64,000 bases of DNA from Colius striatus. Its lineage: Eukaryota > Chordata > Aves > Coliiformes > Coliidae. Location of the stretch: positions 5,524,001 through 5,588,000 of the forward strand of contig NC_084790.1 of assembly GCF_028858725.1 (NCBI RefSeq). The letters run 5' to 3'. Positions 46,935 to 52,038 of this stretch are shown here, piece by piece. Numbering within the stretch: position 1 is the stretch's first letter; every line of letters starts with the position of its first letter. Below the pieces are notes generated by a model. It saw nothing but the letters and a program-made list of their open reading frames with translations. It did no database searches and was not told where the DNA came from. A program made the position numbers and the translations under genes.

Positions 46935-47436
46935 TGAAAGCTTCCCTTATTCGGAACTTTCTCTCTGAATACCGGACGGCGATCACCTCAAGGAAGACGA
47001 GAGACCAGCTTGCTGCAAAAACACGAGGTGGCTTTATTTCGGAGCTCCGGGCCGTCTCATACCTCACGCAGGAGATAGAGGAGGCGACCACGAGGCCCGG
47101 CGGGGAGGGTTTATATAGAGAGGGGAGGAGGCGGAAAATTCCAGCACATCTGCACATCAATAGTGTGGGGAAGGAGAGTGGAAAATCCCAGCACACCTGC
47201 GCAGTTCCATTCGATACAAACCCCAACATGTCCAGACATGCCCAAACGAGCCAAAACCCAAACAAGCCCCAACCATACCGAAACAAACCCCAACATATCC
47301 ATACATGCCCAAACGAGCCAAAACCCAAACAAGCCCCAACTCAGGTCACCCTGATAGCGTGGGGGGGGGTAATGTCCCCAGTTTTACCCTGCAGTTTCCG
47401 ACACCATTCCAGTTCAATCTTTTTTTCTTTCTTTCA
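46935..47436 (-). repeat. 3' LTR of the provirus
   Basis: 502 bp, TG...CA on both strands. On the minus strand it has a TATA box (TATATAAA, 47110-47117) and a poly(A) signal (AATAAA, 47033-47038), giving U3-R-U5 order leftward. U3 carries a direct repeat of 67 bp. It is the LTR nearest to the PHB1 promoter and points toward it. Confidence 0.95.
47217..47340 (-). repeat. 67-bp direct repeat in LTR U3
   Basis: Two near-identical units 67 bp apart, each with CCCAAACGAGCC and CAAGCCCCAAC. Tandem U3 repeats are the usual form of gammaretroviral enhancers. The same pair is in the other LTR at 51819-51942. Confidence 0.85.
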
Positions 47437-47452
47437 TTCCCCACTCCTTTTT
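47437..47452 (-). promoter_or_regulatory. Polypurine tract
   Basis: A purine-only stretch on the minus strand (AAAAAGGAGTGGGGAA) directly before the 3' LTR. It is the plus-strand primer site in reverse transcription and confirms the element's orientation. Confidence 0.92.
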
Positions 47453-47652
47453 GTTAATAATTCTAATCTTAGAATTCATGTTCACGCTCCAGGGTACTTG
47501 AGTTGGGCTTATTACCAATCCTATCATCTAACAAAAACAACTAATCTACTAATTATTGTAACAAAACAAGGCTGGAGACCAGGTTGATCAGTGCGAGCCA
47601 TCCACGCAGACCCCAGTCTCTTGTCAAGCCTTTTCTGACAGAAGTTTTCAGG

Positions 47653-47790
47653 CTACTTCAGCTCTCTTCTTATGTAACCTTCTCCCATAAGTCGGCTGAT
47701 GCTGTGCTTTTCTCTGGCAATGATTCCTAAAATACACTTGTAGACAACATAAATCATAGCTACTAATACAACAAACATAACAATATCATC
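47653..47790 (-). pseudogene. Probable env remnant (end of TM subunit)
   Basis: A 41-codon frame (47778-47653) starts with a hydrophobic stretch rich in Val, Ile and Leu, and then has a charged tail ending in a stop. Place, length and composition fit the membrane span and cytoplasmic tail of a retroviral envelope. All surface-subunit sequence is gone, joined directly to the integrase piece by deletion. Confidence 0.45.
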
Positions 47791-48140
47791 ATCAGGACGT
47801 GCCCAGCTCCCCAAAGTCTCATTAATGGGCGGGGCGCCCCATACATAATCTCAAAGGGGGTCAACCCCGTGGGTCCTGGGGTATTTCGCGCGCAGAAAAG
47901 AGCAAGGGAGAGAAGGGCTGTCCAATCACCCCCGCCGGTCTCTGTAACCAACTTAGTTAAAGTCTCCTTTATAGTTCTATTCATCCTTTCTACCTGTCCT
48001 GAACTTTGGGGCCGGTAAGCACAATGAAGCCTCCAATCAATCCCCAATTGTTTGGCCAGCCCCTGACTTACCTGGGCGACAAAGGCAGGTCCATTGTCTG
48101 ACCCAATTACCTTGGAGACTCCGCATTTTCTCAGGTCCCA
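47763..48140 (-). pseudogene. pol remnant: integrase core piece
   Basis: The frame holds an SDNGP motif (Asp codon 48096-48098) and the [11 protein letters not shown] motif with the catalytic Glu at 47988-47990, so two of the three acidic residues of the integrase core are present. The first Asp, the zinc-binding N-terminus and most of the C-terminal domain are absent. The tail runs into unrelated frame and stops at 47763. Confidence 0.85.
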
Positions 48141-48244
48141 AGTGCGTCAACTGGAGGCCACACTCTCTTCTTCAGACAGGATGACCTTTTCTCTAGTTTC
48201 TGAGCTTCCCACCGAGGTGAGTTCTTTGATTTTGGTCAGTACGA

Positions 48245-48650
48245 TCATGGGTCCTTGGGCCGCCTCCTTGGCATGTTTATCGGCCATTTGGTCAATTCAG
48301 CCTTCTGTGCTGAGGTCCCTTCAGGCAAGGCGCTGGCCCATACGACCCTCTTCCCATCTACCACTGCTGCTCCGGTCCTTCGCTTACCTTCCACGAGGTA
48401 GCTACTCCCGTCTGTGAACCACGACTGCACCCCTGGCAAGGGTTGGTCCGGGAGATCTGCCCAAATACCAGTCTCTTCCGCCAATATTTTCTCACAGCTG
48501 TGGACAGGAAGATTCCCTACCTCAGGCAGCAGGGCGGCCGGATTCAGGACAGCCGGTGGTGCGAGAACGATACGATCTGTTAACAGCAGGCTTTGATAAT
48601 GGGTAAATAGGCCACTGGGCGTTTCCATGGACCAAAGGCCTGAGTCAGAA
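48245..48650 (-). pseudogene. pol remnant: end of reverse transcriptase and RNase H piece
   Basis: A short RT-end segment, then an RNase H-like frame from 48628. Visible in it are a DGSS motif (D73) and an E in AQKAE (E111), two of the acidic residues that bind metal. After about 48292 the sequence jumps, and the remaining active-site region is missing. Internal deletions and a frame change make it nonfunctional. Confidence 0.8.
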
Positions 48651-48804
48651 CCCCTCGGGCAATCCCATTTATTTTTTTGTCCGCTGGCCCCAATTACCAG
48701 AGTACAGAATATTCAGCTCCTGTATCGATCAAGAAGTTAACAGGAGTTCCCCCCACACTTAGGGTTACCCTAGGCTTGGGGAGGGGGGCCGAGCCCCGTC
48801 TCCC
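48650..48804 (-). pseudogene. pro (retroviral protease), N-terminal piece
   Basis: Open in the gag frame straight after the amber stop, so the read-through arrangement is kept. The aspartic protease active-site motif DTGA is at 48715-48726. A stop codon follows at 48694-48696, and beyond about 48650 the sequence changes to late reverse transcriptase, so the protease end and most of reverse transcriptase are deleted. Confidence 0.8.
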
Positions 48805-50390
48805 CTAATTTTCGTCTTCCAAGATCATGACTTTCAACCCTTTCTTCTTAGGGCATTCTCGGGCCCAATGTCCCTTCTCCTTGCAAAAAGCACATTGATC
48901 ATTTTCCAAGGGCGCCCATCCTCTTCCGGGTCTCCTTGGCCCTTGCCTTTGACTGTCGCCCAGGTTCCCTCCCTGTCTGGATCTCTCTGCTCCTTGTCGC
49001 TTTCCCTCTTGTATTACTGTACTTAAAATCCTAGTTAAATTCCTATCCTGACACTTCTGTCTTCGTCTTTCTGCTTCCTCCCTTTCCTTTTTTTCTCTTT
49101 CTTGTTTCTCCTCCTCTGTTTCTCTCTTATGATATACTTTCTCAGCCTCTTTTACCACATCCCGAAGAGTATAGTCCTGTAACCCTTCTATATGCTGCAA
49201 TTTTCTTTTTATGTCTGGGGCAGACTGCCCAATAAATGACATAATAACAGACGCCCTCTGCCCTTCTGATGTCGGATCAAAAGGAGTGTATATCCGATAG
49301 GCTTCCATAAGCCTCTCAAGGAACACAGAGGGAGGTTCGTTAGAACCTTGCATAATTTCCCTTACCTTAGCCAAATTAGTAGGTTTCCTTGCAGCCCCCC
49401 TAAGTCCTGCCACCAGAGCCCGGCGATAGATGGACAGCCGTTCCCTACCTGCTGCTGTATTATAGTCCCACTGCGGCCGTGTCAAAGGAAAAGCCTCATC
49501 GACTTCTGCCGCCGTCAGCGTTGGTTGCCCGGCAGGATCACGAACAGCTTTTCGCGCCTCCGAGACAATTCTTTCTCTCTCTTCGGTGGTCAAGAGGGTG
49601 TTTAGTAATTGCTGACAGTCGTCCCAAGTCGGTTGATGGGAGTACATCAGAGACTCGACTAAACCTGTAAGAGCAGCAGGATTCTCCGAAAAAGGAGGGT
49701 GATTAGTTTTCCAATTATATAGATCAGATGAAGAAAAAGGCCAATATTGCAACACCTGCAACTCATTTTGGTCTGCCGGGGGTGGCCCACCCACTCGAAG
49801 AGGCAAAGTGACGGCCGAATCAGGCCCATCCGCCCACGCCCGTCTCCTGCTGCGGGTGCCGGCGGGCGGTCCCCCGGCAGGCACTTGAGGAGGGGGGGGT
49901 TGATAAAGAGGGGGCTGAATTGGTTCCGGCGGTGGCGCCGTGGGCCATTCAGGAGGCCCTTCTATTTCAGGGTAAATTTTGGACGGTTCTTTTTTACTTT
50001 TCTCACTTTTCTCCTCATTATCTCGGTCAGCCCCTTCCCCAGTATTTAATGTCAAAGCACTAACTTCTGCGGGTAAATCCATTAATCCCCACGGGGGGAG
50101 AAAAGGTCTAACCCAGTTAGGGGGGTAGAGAACCAAGTCTTCCCATAATGAGATGTAAGGTACCTGGTCCGGGTGCCCTCCCTTGATAATAGCCTGGACT
50201 GCTCGAATGGTTGTGATATCAAAAGTACCAGTCCGAGGCCAGCCCACTTTAAGGGTGGGCCATTCGCTTTCACAATAGACATGCCATTTTCCCTTTTTTT
50301 TACAATTAACGATAAATTCCGTCCTCTAGCCGTAACGTCCGCCCAATGATCCAGAATCAAAGACAAAGGAGTAGATTCAGCTTGACCCAT
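48805..50390 (-). pseudogene. gag: gag (matrix-p12-capsid-nucleocapsid), one frame break
   Basis: Starts at 50390 with an MGQ end fit for myristoylation. The matrix frame is lost at an eight-base A run (50294-50301 on the plus strand as T8) and resumes in another frame, open from about 50290 through to 48805. In that second frame, counted from 50247: a PPLY late-domain motif at residues 112-115, a basic cleavage-like segment at 133-136, the capsid from about 147, the major homology region at about 298-325, a charged coiled region at 376-400, and one CCHC knuckle (C452, C455, H460, C465). It ends in an amber TAG, the usual gammaretroviral read-through stop. Total length is near that of a full Gag. 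The break is a single-base length change in a homopolymer, so a sequencing error is possible. Confidence 0.93.
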
Positions 50391-50534
50391 TTTACTCCAA
50401 TAAAAACCGAGACTTCCTAGTACGAAAACAAAGAAAAACACTAACACCGAGCCTGTTTCCAACCAACTCTGTTTGCACTCAGACAGCAAAGACTGAAGCA
50501 TTACTTCAGATGGCCTGAGGCCTCTCCTTCCCAT
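50391..50534 (-). other. In-frame N-terminal extension of Gag with hydrophobic segment
   Basis: An ATG at 50534 opens a frame that runs without stop into the Gag start at 50390, adding 48 residues. Residues 29-46 are a strongly hydrophobic stretch of Val, Phe, Leu and Gly, fit for a membrane anchor. Some gammaretroviruses make a glycosylated Gag from an upstream start with such a leader. This is therefore a candidate relic of that product, by position and composition only. The frame breaks soon after, at 50294-50301, as for Gag. Confidence 0.5.
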
Positions 50535-50795
50535 TCAACAAAGACCACAATCGCCTGTTAAATACCGATACCGACACCTCATTAACAGAAACAAGACCAC
50601 AGAAACAAGACCAGCGGTTCACTGAATTCCGGGCAGTCAGACCCTCCTGACTCCCTTCCACCCTTGAGGCGTCCCTCAGGGCCGCAGCCTGCGGTTCTGG
50701 ACACGTCTATCCCCGCAGTCACTGAGTCCTCACGGTCCTCAGTGACAGCTGCACCAAAATACCAACGGGATCCCAAATCGCCAACACGCCAAGTG

Positions 50796-51068
50796 AACCA
50801 AAAGTGGGACTTTAACCCACGAGTGGGACTTAAACCCACAACCAGGGGTGGGACTCGAACCCACAATCCCTGTCCTCAGACCAGTAAACCAAAAGTGGGA
50901 CTTTAACCCACGAGTGGGACTTAAACCCACAACCAGGGGTGGGACTCGAACCCACGATCCCTGTCCTCAGACCAGTGAACCAAAAGTGGGACTTTAACCC
51001 ACGAGTGGGACTTAAACCCACAACCAGGGGTGGGACTCGAACCCACGATCCCTGTCCTCAGACCAGTG
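50796..51068 (-). repeat. Three 91-bp tandem units with tRNA T-arm-like hairpins
   Basis: Three units, spaced exactly 91 bp, in the leader between primer site and gag. Each holds three 17-nt hairpins with stem GTGGG/CCCAC and a 7-nt loop. On the minus strand one loop is TTCGAGT, which fits the tRNA T-loop; these copies are at 50848-50864, 50939-50955 and 51030-51046 and include GGTTCGAGTCC, an exact RNA polymerase III B box. The other two loops per unit (TTTAAGT and TTAAAGT; for example 50823-50839 and 50804-50820) are altered forms that lose the invariant C and G. The text around the intact hairpin (TCTGAGG... GATCGTGGGTTCGAG) resembles a tRNA 3' half. No full cloverleaf or A box was found. 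Confidence 0.92.
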
Positions 51069-51516
51069 TCGGGTATTTTGCTTCCTTCAGACAGATCTTA
51101 TTCTAACAGGCTAGATTACTTCGTGGTTTTTTTGTTGGTTTTTTTGCAACTATTCTCACGCGGCTCGGAACGATGACAAAAACGAATAAGTCCTGCAATC
51201 CAAACTCCCAGTCGTATACAATATAAACAACACTCACTAAAACATTTAAAGAGACACAGACCAGCCTTCCAAAATATACACGAAACAGACCCCCAAGATA
51301 TAGCTCAGTAAGACACCCACAGTACAAACCAGATTCCCAAGAAAAATGCACAAGAACATTCGTAGTGTATCCCTAAAACAGCATAAGATTTTATAGCAGC
51401 ACAGAAATTCTTTTTCAATCACTCATGTGGCGCCACACACTCACAAACACTCACAAGCACATTCACACAAAAAGCTCACCTCCAAGGGGTCATCGTTTCC
51501 TGAGGTGTTCGTCGAT

Positions 51517-51534
51517 ATCCCGGACGAGCCCCCA
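51517..51534 (-). promoter_or_regulatory. Primer binding site, tRNA-Pro type
   Basis: Eighteen bases, starting TGGGGGCTCG on the minus strand, two bases after the 5' LTR. They match the proline-tRNA primer site known from murine-type gammaretroviruses. Confidence 0.93.
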
Positions 51535-51536
51535 AA

Positions 51537-52038
51537 TGAAAGCTTCCCTTATTCGGAACTTTCTCTCTGAATACCGGACGGCGATCACCTCAAGGAAGAC
51601 GAGAGACCAGCTTGCTGCAAAAACACGAGGTGGCTTTATTTCGGAGCTCCGGGCCGTCTCATACCTCACGCAGGAGATAGAGGAGGCGACCACGAGGCCC
51701 GGCGGGGAGGGTTTATATAGAGAGGGGAGGAGGCGGAAAATTCCAGCACATCTGCACATCAATAGTGTGGGGAAGGAGAGTGGAAAATCCCAGCACACCT
51801 GCGCAGTTCCATTCGATACAAACCCCAACATGTCCAGACATGCCCAAACGAGCCAAAACCCAAACAAGCCCCAACCATACCGAAACAAACCCCAACATAT
51901 CCATACATGCCCAAACGAGCCAAAACCCAAACAAGCCCCAACTCAGGTCACCCTGATAGCGTGGGGGGGGGTAATGTCCCCAGTTTTACCCTGCAGTTTC
52001 CGACACCATTCCAGTTCAATCTTTTTTTCTTTCTTTCA
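51537..52038 (-). repeat. 5' LTR of the provirus
   Basis: 502 bp, base-for-base the same as the 3' LTR in my reading, offset by 4602 bp. TATA box at 51712-51719 and poly(A) signal at 51635-51640 on the minus strand. Confidence 0.95.

What the first reader, a model, noticed from the sequence alone, without database searches (positions are those of the whole stretch)
50796..51068. Provirus leader carries an array of tRNA T-arm mimics with exact Pol III B boxes
Seen: three 91-bp units, nine GTGGG/CCCAC hairpins with 7-nt loops, three of them with loop TTCGAGT and the exact B-box GGTTCGAGTCC. Known: the B box is bound by TFIIIC, and T-arm-like RNA folds are used by some viruses as tRNA mimics. 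Inference: the array could recruit TFIIIC to the provirus (boundary or promoter effect), act as an RNA structure in packaging or primer handling, or be a captured tRNA 3' half that then multiplied. I know of no described gammaretroviral leader with this arrangement.
Basis: partly seen in the sequence, partly recalled or inferred. Interest (0 to 1): 0.8.

Follow-up and report, generated by a model that had tools for sequence, protein, structure and literature searches.

The report
tRNA-arm-like hairpin array in bird provirus
The RNA leader of a bird retrovirus family carries a row of small hairpins shaped like one arm of a transfer RNA, and nearly the same hairpin is known from mouse VL30 elements, where its repeats go with sorting of the RNA into vesicles.

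Summary
In detail: 50796-51068 (minus strand) holds three 91-bp units with nine GTGGG-N7-CCCAC hairpins. They lie in the leader of a gammaretrovirus-type provirus, after the PBS (tRNA-Pro) and a splice-donor-like site, just before encapsidation-type hairpins. All 44 copies that I read in the same genome carry the array, with 3 to 15 hairpins. The B-box reading is not supported: an exact B box is in 73 of 272 hairpins and 30 of 44 copies, and base 56 is the most variable loop position. What all 272 hairpins keep is the loop TTNRAGT, the signature of a T-loop fold. tRNA likeness is real over about 25 nt; no cloverleaf beyond the hairpins is supported. Most likely it is an RNA sorting or packaging element of T-loop hairpins. 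That role is inferred; computed stability and self-dimerisation do not exceed shuffles.

The parts
51537..52038 (-). 5' LTR, 502 bp, TG...CA; identical to the 3' LTR; CATG on both outer sides
46935..47436 (-). 3' LTR, 502 bp
51517..51534 (-). primer binding site, exact complement of the last 18 nt of tRNA-Pro
   Evidence: tRNA-Pro letters in PMC12217144 passage
51474..51483 (-). splice-donor-like GGAG|GTGAGC; the array lies downstream, so only in unspliced RNA if this donor is used
   Evidence: use as a donor is inferred
50796..51068 (-). array: three 91-bp units, nine hairpins
51025..51054 (-). first unit in the RNA, hp1 with outer stem CAGGG/CCCTG, 3-nt ATC bulge, inner stem GTGGG/CCCAC, loop TTCGAGT
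50934..50963 (-). second unit, hp1 with outer stem
50843..50872 (-). third unit, hp1 with outer stem (bulge ATT)
51005..51021 (-). first unit hp2, loop TTTAAGT (copies at 50914-50930 and 50823-50839)
50986..51002 (-). first unit hp3, loop TTAAAGT (copies at 50895-50911 and 50804-50820)
50715..50749 (-). inverted repeat, 12-nt arms 92% complementary, 11-nt loop: possible dimer-initiation hairpin
   Evidence: role inferred
50660..50745 (-). core encapsidation signal-like region with two GACG hairpins (50699-50712, 50663-50679); Rfam RF00374 29.6 bits, gathering 93, E 0.088
50391..50534 (-). in-frame N-terminal extension with a hydrophobic stretch before MGQ, as in glycosylated Gag
   Evidence: function inferred
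48805..50390 (-). gag (MA, p30, zinc knuckle), in two reading frames, so broken

Best explanation
The array is an RNA element of the leader of an avian gammaretrovirus-type provirus family. It is made of stand-alone T-loop hairpins (5-bp GUGGG/CCCAC stem, 7-nt loop UUNRAGU) that probably began as a piece of a host tRNA, about from the variable loop to the first acceptor base, copied in sense orientation into the viral RNA, doubled inside one unit, and then multiplied as 91-bp units. It lies after a donor-like site and next to encapsidation-type hairpins, so it would mark unspliced RNA, and it most likely helps sort that RNA into particles or vesicles, as proposed for the matching VL30 repeats. 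Shown: anatomy, presence in every copy read, invariant loop positions, 22-nt identity and same predicted shape as the VL30 motif, tRNA-type letters. Inferred: capture by template switching during reverse transcription, the sorting role, and that the T-loop fold is what is recognised.
For: Array in 40 of 40 places found with the leader alone, the array left out of the query (36 seen before, four new), and in all 44 copies read. All 272 hairpins found fit TTNRAGT, 263 with perfect stems. Over 60 units of 30 rows the loop columns 54, 55, 58, 59, 60 vary in 0 of 15, columns 56-57 in 5 of 6, stems in 8 of 30, spacers in 18 of 40; 0 of 15 against 26 of 70 gives p = 0.004, 0.007 with the three dropped rearranged units put back (columns 22 on), and 0.034 with one unit per row. 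VL30's 26-nt motif shares 22 nt exactly (0 of 200 shuffles reach the score), and both fold to outer stem, 3-nt AUC bulge, inner stem, 7-nt loop, with unlike outer stems GCGAG/CUCGU and CAGGG/CCCUG. In the VL30 paper the motif occurs in tandem (nine copies in the clone used), is absent from the ten least enriched isoforms, and a fragment with the repeats was about 600-fold enriched in vesicles; its authors match it to the VL30 Psi signal. A review says VL30 has imperfect repeats in its dimer linkage (PMC516450 passage). The 12-row clade (99/93 support) has 6-15 hairpins per copy, while 11 of the 18 other rows have 3.
Against: No experiment on this virus. Stem columns are not significantly quieter than spacers (p = 0.14). 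Unit and leader are no more stable than shuffles (61 of 200 and 5 of 20 fold as well); array self-dimer gain is not above shuffles (37 of 60; unit 60 of 200). In full context some hp1 hairpins pair with each other instead (pair probabilities 0.01-0.87). VL30 was compared only through short letters printed in papers; of four VL30 primers aligned, the two outside the motif match weakly (140 of 200 and 5 of 200 shuffles as good). The VL30 fragment tested held more than the motif and its authors did not define a minimum. Units of one copy and copies of one family are not independent. Only 40 of 120 first-look candidates were scored, so copies without the array may exist.
Confidence: 0.53

Rival explanations
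1. Neutral passenger: a tRNA piece was captured and the inverted repeats then expanded by slippage and recombination during reverse transcription, with no function.
For: Unit numbers differ within the family (3, 5, 6, 8, 9, 12 or 15 hairpins); stems not quieter than spacers; no excess stability; with one unit per row the loop test is only p = 0.034.
Against: No copy read lacks it; five loop positions never vary while their two neighbours do; nearly the same hairpin is tandem in VL30.
Confidence: 0.27
2. T-arm-like substrate for tRNA-modifying enzymes: TRMT6/61A makes m1A in GUUCRA T-loop-like hairpins of mRNA, and TRUB1 makes pseudouridine in similar ones, changing RNA fate or copying by reverse transcriptase.
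For: 73 of 272 hairpins carry a TTCRA loop in the right stem; TRMT6/61A needs GUUCRA and a T-loop-like structure in mRNA (PMC9141559 passages; PMC9317671 passages).
Against: 14 of 44 copies have no such loop; most hp2 and hp3 lack C56; an m1A in the genome would tend to stop reverse transcription. The TRUB1 motif is recalled: its paper was not held, and the review passage seen gives GUUCNANNC for m1A (PMC9916637).
Confidence: 0.08
3. DNA-level B-box array that recruits TFIIIC or Pol III to the provirus.
For: Exact B box in hp1 of the window copy, three times; the human tRNA-Arg gene in the TFIIIC structure has the same 17-nt arm; 30 of 44 copies, and 16 of 30 rows, have at least one exact B box, among them rows outside the young clade, two in hp1 (L028, L040) and two in hp3 (L047, L105).
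Against: 14 of 44 copies have none; bases 56 and 57 are the variable ones; 6 of 9 hairpins in the window lack it; no tRNA gene is supported.
Confidence: 0.06
4. Dimer-linkage element that works by duplex formation between palindromic hairpins of two RNAs.
For: Each hairpin is an inverted repeat; VL30 has imperfect repeats in its dimer linkage.
Against: Computed self-dimer gain equals that of shuffles; a separate 12-nt inverted repeat lies nearer the GACG hairpins.
Confidence: 0.06

Closest known systems
VL30 26-nt tandem SEV enrichment motif (mouse gammaretrovirus-like elements)
   Same: 22 of 26 nt identical; tandem; LTR element with 4-bp target duplication; same predicted bulged hairpin; a VL30 primer also shows a TTAGA loop, as in most deep bird rows
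   Different: outer-stem letters differ but still pair; VL30 PBS is tRNA-Gly (35 of 36) and here tRNA-Pro; here two further plain hairpins per 91-bp unit; host taken to be a bird
tRNA T arm (human tRNA-Lys-CTT, tRNA-Arg-TCT-3)
   Same: 23 of 25 aligned columns identical to tRNA-Lys-CTT (one 1-nt gap, one change); 19 nt identical to tRNA-Arg-TCT-3 in the third unit
   Different: no D arm, anticodon arm, acceptor stem or CCA end supported; RF00005 19.1 bits in L042, gathering 29
Gammaretroviral core encapsidation signal (GACG hairpins)
   Same: present about 50 nt 3' of the array
   Different: the array is a separate element; the CES matches (29.6-32.6 bits) are below Rfam's gathering score of 93
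Interdigitated T-loops that bind the tRNA elbow (T-box, RNase P, ribosome E site)
   Same: pentanucleotide T-loops, UGxRA or AGAGA there and UUNRA here (PMC7583486 passages)
   Different: there two interlocked loops in one apex; interlocking not tested here

Membership tests
VL30-type tandem motif | 26-nt motif letters | tested here: inconclusive
   22 nt identical; the end letters differ but the outer stem still pairs
VL30-type tandem motif | tandem repetition of the hairpin in a gammaretrovirus-type element | tested here: met
VL30 element | PBS for tRNA-Gly (35 of 36 in PMC8615591) | tested here: not met
   PBS complements tRNA-Pro over 18 nt
VL30-type tandem motif | enrichment of the RNA in small vesicles | not testable with these tools
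   needs expression data
tRNA or tRNA-like structure | T arm: 5-bp stem and 7-nt loop with U54, U55, R57, A58 | tested here: met
tRNA or tRNA-like structure | cloverleaf above Rfam RF00005 gathering score, beyond the hairpins | tested here: not met
   19.1 of 29 bits in L042; ARAGORN control
Pol III type 2 promoter or TFIIIC-only site | conserved B box | tested here: not met
   73 of 272 hairpins, 30 of 44 copies
Pol III type 2 promoter or TFIIIC-only site | A box 30-67 bp from the B box | not tested
   spacing from PMC11811891 passage; no scan run
Gammaretrovirus | Gag_p30 and Gag_MA domains | tested here: met
   E 4.2e-94 and 1.2e-23
Gammaretrovirus | GACG encapsidation hairpins and UAG readthrough knot | tested here: inconclusive
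   RF00374 29.6 of 93 bits, RF01073 63.1 of 67.7 bits

The most novel reading that the evidence does not exclude
Gammaretroviruses of birds and of rodents have each built tandem arrays from the same tRNA T-arm hairpin, and a host factor that reads the T-loop fold (not the letter at 56) uses them to sort unspliced viral RNA into particles and vesicles. The VL30 'vesicle motif' would then be a tRNA T-loop mimic, and array length would be a dose setting under selection in the youngest lineages.
Probability: 0.2. Interest if true: 0.85.

Novelty: new variant of a known kind. Interest (0 to 1): 0.6.

Why it matters
The bird family shows which loop letters are kept (U54, U55, a purine at 57, A58, G59, U60) and which is free (56), so the T-loop fold becomes a concrete, testable candidate for what is recognised. 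In what I saw neither VL30 paper relates the motif to tRNA: 'tRNA' has 0 hits in PMC8472637, and the 3 hits in PMC8615591 concern the PBS. I make no wider claim of absence from print.

Tried and rejected
B box as the conserved feature: rejected on 44 copies. Complete tRNA or cloverleaf: rejected by the hairpin-keeping shuffle control (98-123 of 1000) and RF00005 below threshold. Extra stability and self-dimerisation: not above shuffles. PBS read-through as the source: rejected by reasoning, because the piece is in tRNA sense on the viral RNA strand whereas a PBS is antisense. Relatives in IMG/VR: none for the array pattern, the gag piece or a gag alignment. Plus-strand ORF over the array in the protein database: 4 candidates, none scored. 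Papers by general terms gave two papers, one and four, none on such an array by their listing; the VL30 link came from searching the 17-mer itself. The shorter 14-mer GATCGTGGGTTCGA also sits in a primer for the mouse AP2-alpha promoter (PMC5607342 passage), so short stretches alone are weak evidence. Wanted and never answered: tRNA genes and other provirus families of this genome with the same arm, and further older copies. LTR dating of other copies was not done; age statements rest on tree branches only.

Full report
What is there. The provirus is on the minus strand. Its LTRs, 502 bp, are identical, begin TG and end CA, and have CATG on both outer sides. The PBS is an exact 18-nt complement of the tRNA-Pro 3' end (tRNA-Pro letters). 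About 35 nt further a splice-donor-like GGAG|GTGAGC follows. Gag has MA, p30 and a zinc knuckle but lies in two frames; an RNase H piece and an integrase piece follow, both below Pfam's cut-offs. From the spacing (about 90 bp between gag and the RNase H piece, about 330 bp between the integrase piece and the 3' LTR) there is no room for RT or env; no separate search for them was made. Gag relatives number 442 at E <= 0.001 among 7989 scored candidates, 120 listed; most names shown are mammalian, and two are birds (Colius striatus P0017, Nothoprocta perdicaria P0118).

The array. 50796-51068 is three 91-bp units, 98-99% alike. Each has hp1 (loop TTCGAGT), hp2 (TTTAAGT) and hp3 (TTAAAGT) on the same GTGGG/CCCAC stem; hp1 also has an outer stem CAGGG/CCCTG with a 3-nt bulge. 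In one unit alone each hairpin has pair probability 0.85-0.95; in the full leader hp3 stays at 0.88-0.98 but hp1 ranges from 0.01 to 0.87 because hp1 copies can pair with each other. Energies do not beat shuffles.

Other copies. A search of the same genome (1.21 Gb) with the array gave 42 matches, which are 40 places, all fetched. A search with the leader alone gave 40 places, of which 36 were among these; the other four were fetched and also carry the array. So 44 of 44 copies read have it: 3 hairpins in 11, 5 in 2, 6 in 19, 8 in 2, 9 in 8, 12 in 1 and 15 in 1. Fifteen of the 44 are near-identical copies on contigs C171 and C177, mostly 10-14 kb apart, taken here as one amplified segment; collapsing them leaves 30 rows. 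The first search could not find copies without the array, and the second scored 40 of 120 candidates.

What is conserved. All 272 hairpins fit TTNRAGT; 263 have perfect stems. Hairpins were sought with at most one mismatch per arm, a 7-nt loop of any letters, within a set distance of the PBS, so more decayed ones would be missed. Base 56 takes all four letters and base 57 is A or G. Over 60 units of 30 rows, the five other loop positions vary in 0 of 15 columns, against 26 of 70 stem and spacer columns (p = 0.004). Three units with a rearranged 5' flank (L026, L027, L102) were dropped before that count; with them back, columns 22 on, p = 0.007, and with one unit per row p = 0.034. Duplicated hairpins and shared ancestry make columns and units not independent. 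Stems against spacers: 8 of 30 and 18 of 40, p = 0.14. UUNRA resembles the pentanucleotide T-loop (UGxRA in PMC7583486 passages; the UU form of tRNA is general knowledge).

History. In the leader tree with the array cut out (30 rows, midpoint root), a supported clade of 12 rows (99/93) has 6-15 hairpins and a first hp1 loop TTCGAGT (TTCAAGT in L017). Of the 18 other rows, 16 have hp1 loop TTAGAGT and 11 have 3 hairpins. So in hp1 the exact B box looks derived; against that, L028 and L040 have it in hp1 and L047 and L105 in hp3 (TTCAAGT), outside the clade. Multi-unit or rearranged arrays also occur in L023 and L025, L024, L026, L027, L028 and L102, so growth of the array has probably happened more than once; many inner branches are weakly supported. 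That the 12-row clade is the youngest rests on its short end branches.

tRNA origin. In IMG/VR, 54 contigs hold GATCGTGGGTTNRAGTCCCACC and 49 of the 54 matches lie inside ARAGORN tRNA genes (Met 21, Ile 11, Lys 7, Val 4, Pro 3, His 1, unassigned 2), so this stretch, variable-loop end included, is tRNA-type sequence, at least in viruses of microbes. Their loops are TTCGAGT 32, TTCAAGT 20, TTTGAGT 2; none is TTAGAGT, the commoner hp1 loop outside the young clade, which tells against a simple capture of the TTCGAGT form followed by copying. Human tRNA-Lys-CTT matches over 25 columns with 23 identities (one gap, one change), and tRNA-Arg-TCT-3 over 19 identical nt in the third unit. The parent is not settled; the tRNA genes of this genome could not be searched. 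Sense orientation fits template switching onto a packaged tRNA during minus-strand synthesis (inference).

VL30. Searching papers for the 17-mer found the VL30 26-nt motif. PMC8472637 (parts 2 and 3 of 5 read; passages) reports the motif in tandem in vesicle-enriched VL30 isoforms and absent from the ten least enriched; a fragment with nine copies, about 20% of the full length, was about 600-fold enriched in vesicles, was predicted as a long dsRNA hairpin, and induced interferon-stimulated genes when overexpressed, unlike full-length VL30; its authors state that the motif matches the VL30 Psi packaging signal. PMC8615591 (parts 1 and 2 of 4 read) dates the motif to about 4.4 million years, with most carriers recent. 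A VL30 reverse primer, read in sense, shows a TTAGA loop. A mouse study lists primers CGAGATCGTGGGTTCGAGTC for two 'novel miRNAs', letters that fit the VL30 hairpin (PMC12153713 passage). Whether bird and mouse elements share the hairpin by descent, recombination or separate capture is open; the unlike outer stems with the same bulge favour the structure as the kept thing.

Verdict. The finding is real and more interesting than a local repeat, but it is not shown to be a B-box array and it is not without precedent.

Noticed in passing
G000 contigs C171 and C177 (L019-L022, L029-L039): Fifteen near-identical copies of this provirus leader, mostly 10-14 kb apart: apparently an amplified segment that carries the provirus.
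   Followed up: partly
47212-47340 and 51814-51942: Both LTRs hold a 67-bp direct repeat, 1.9 copies, of the kind seen in retroviral enhancers.
   Followed up: no
50391-50534 (-): In-frame extension before MGQ with a hydrophobic stretch and a PSEV start shared with gag proteins P0001 and P0002: glycosylated-Gag-like.
   Followed up: partly
48747-48807 (-): UAG readthrough pseudoknot-like match (RF01073, 63.1 bits, gathering 67.7) at the gag end.
   Followed up: no
46935-52038: LTRs identical and target duplication intact although gag is frameshifted and no room is left for RT and env: a young, internally deleted insertion, probably spread with help from others.
   Followed up: partly
51075-51536: About 400 nt between the donor-like site and the array with no known element found; PBS to array is 401-483 nt in the 40 copies.
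   Followed up: no
PMC12153713 table: Primers for mouse cumulus-cell 'novel-miR-28' and 'novel-miR-168' have letters that fit the VL30 hairpin, so small RNAs may come from such arrays.
   Followed up: no
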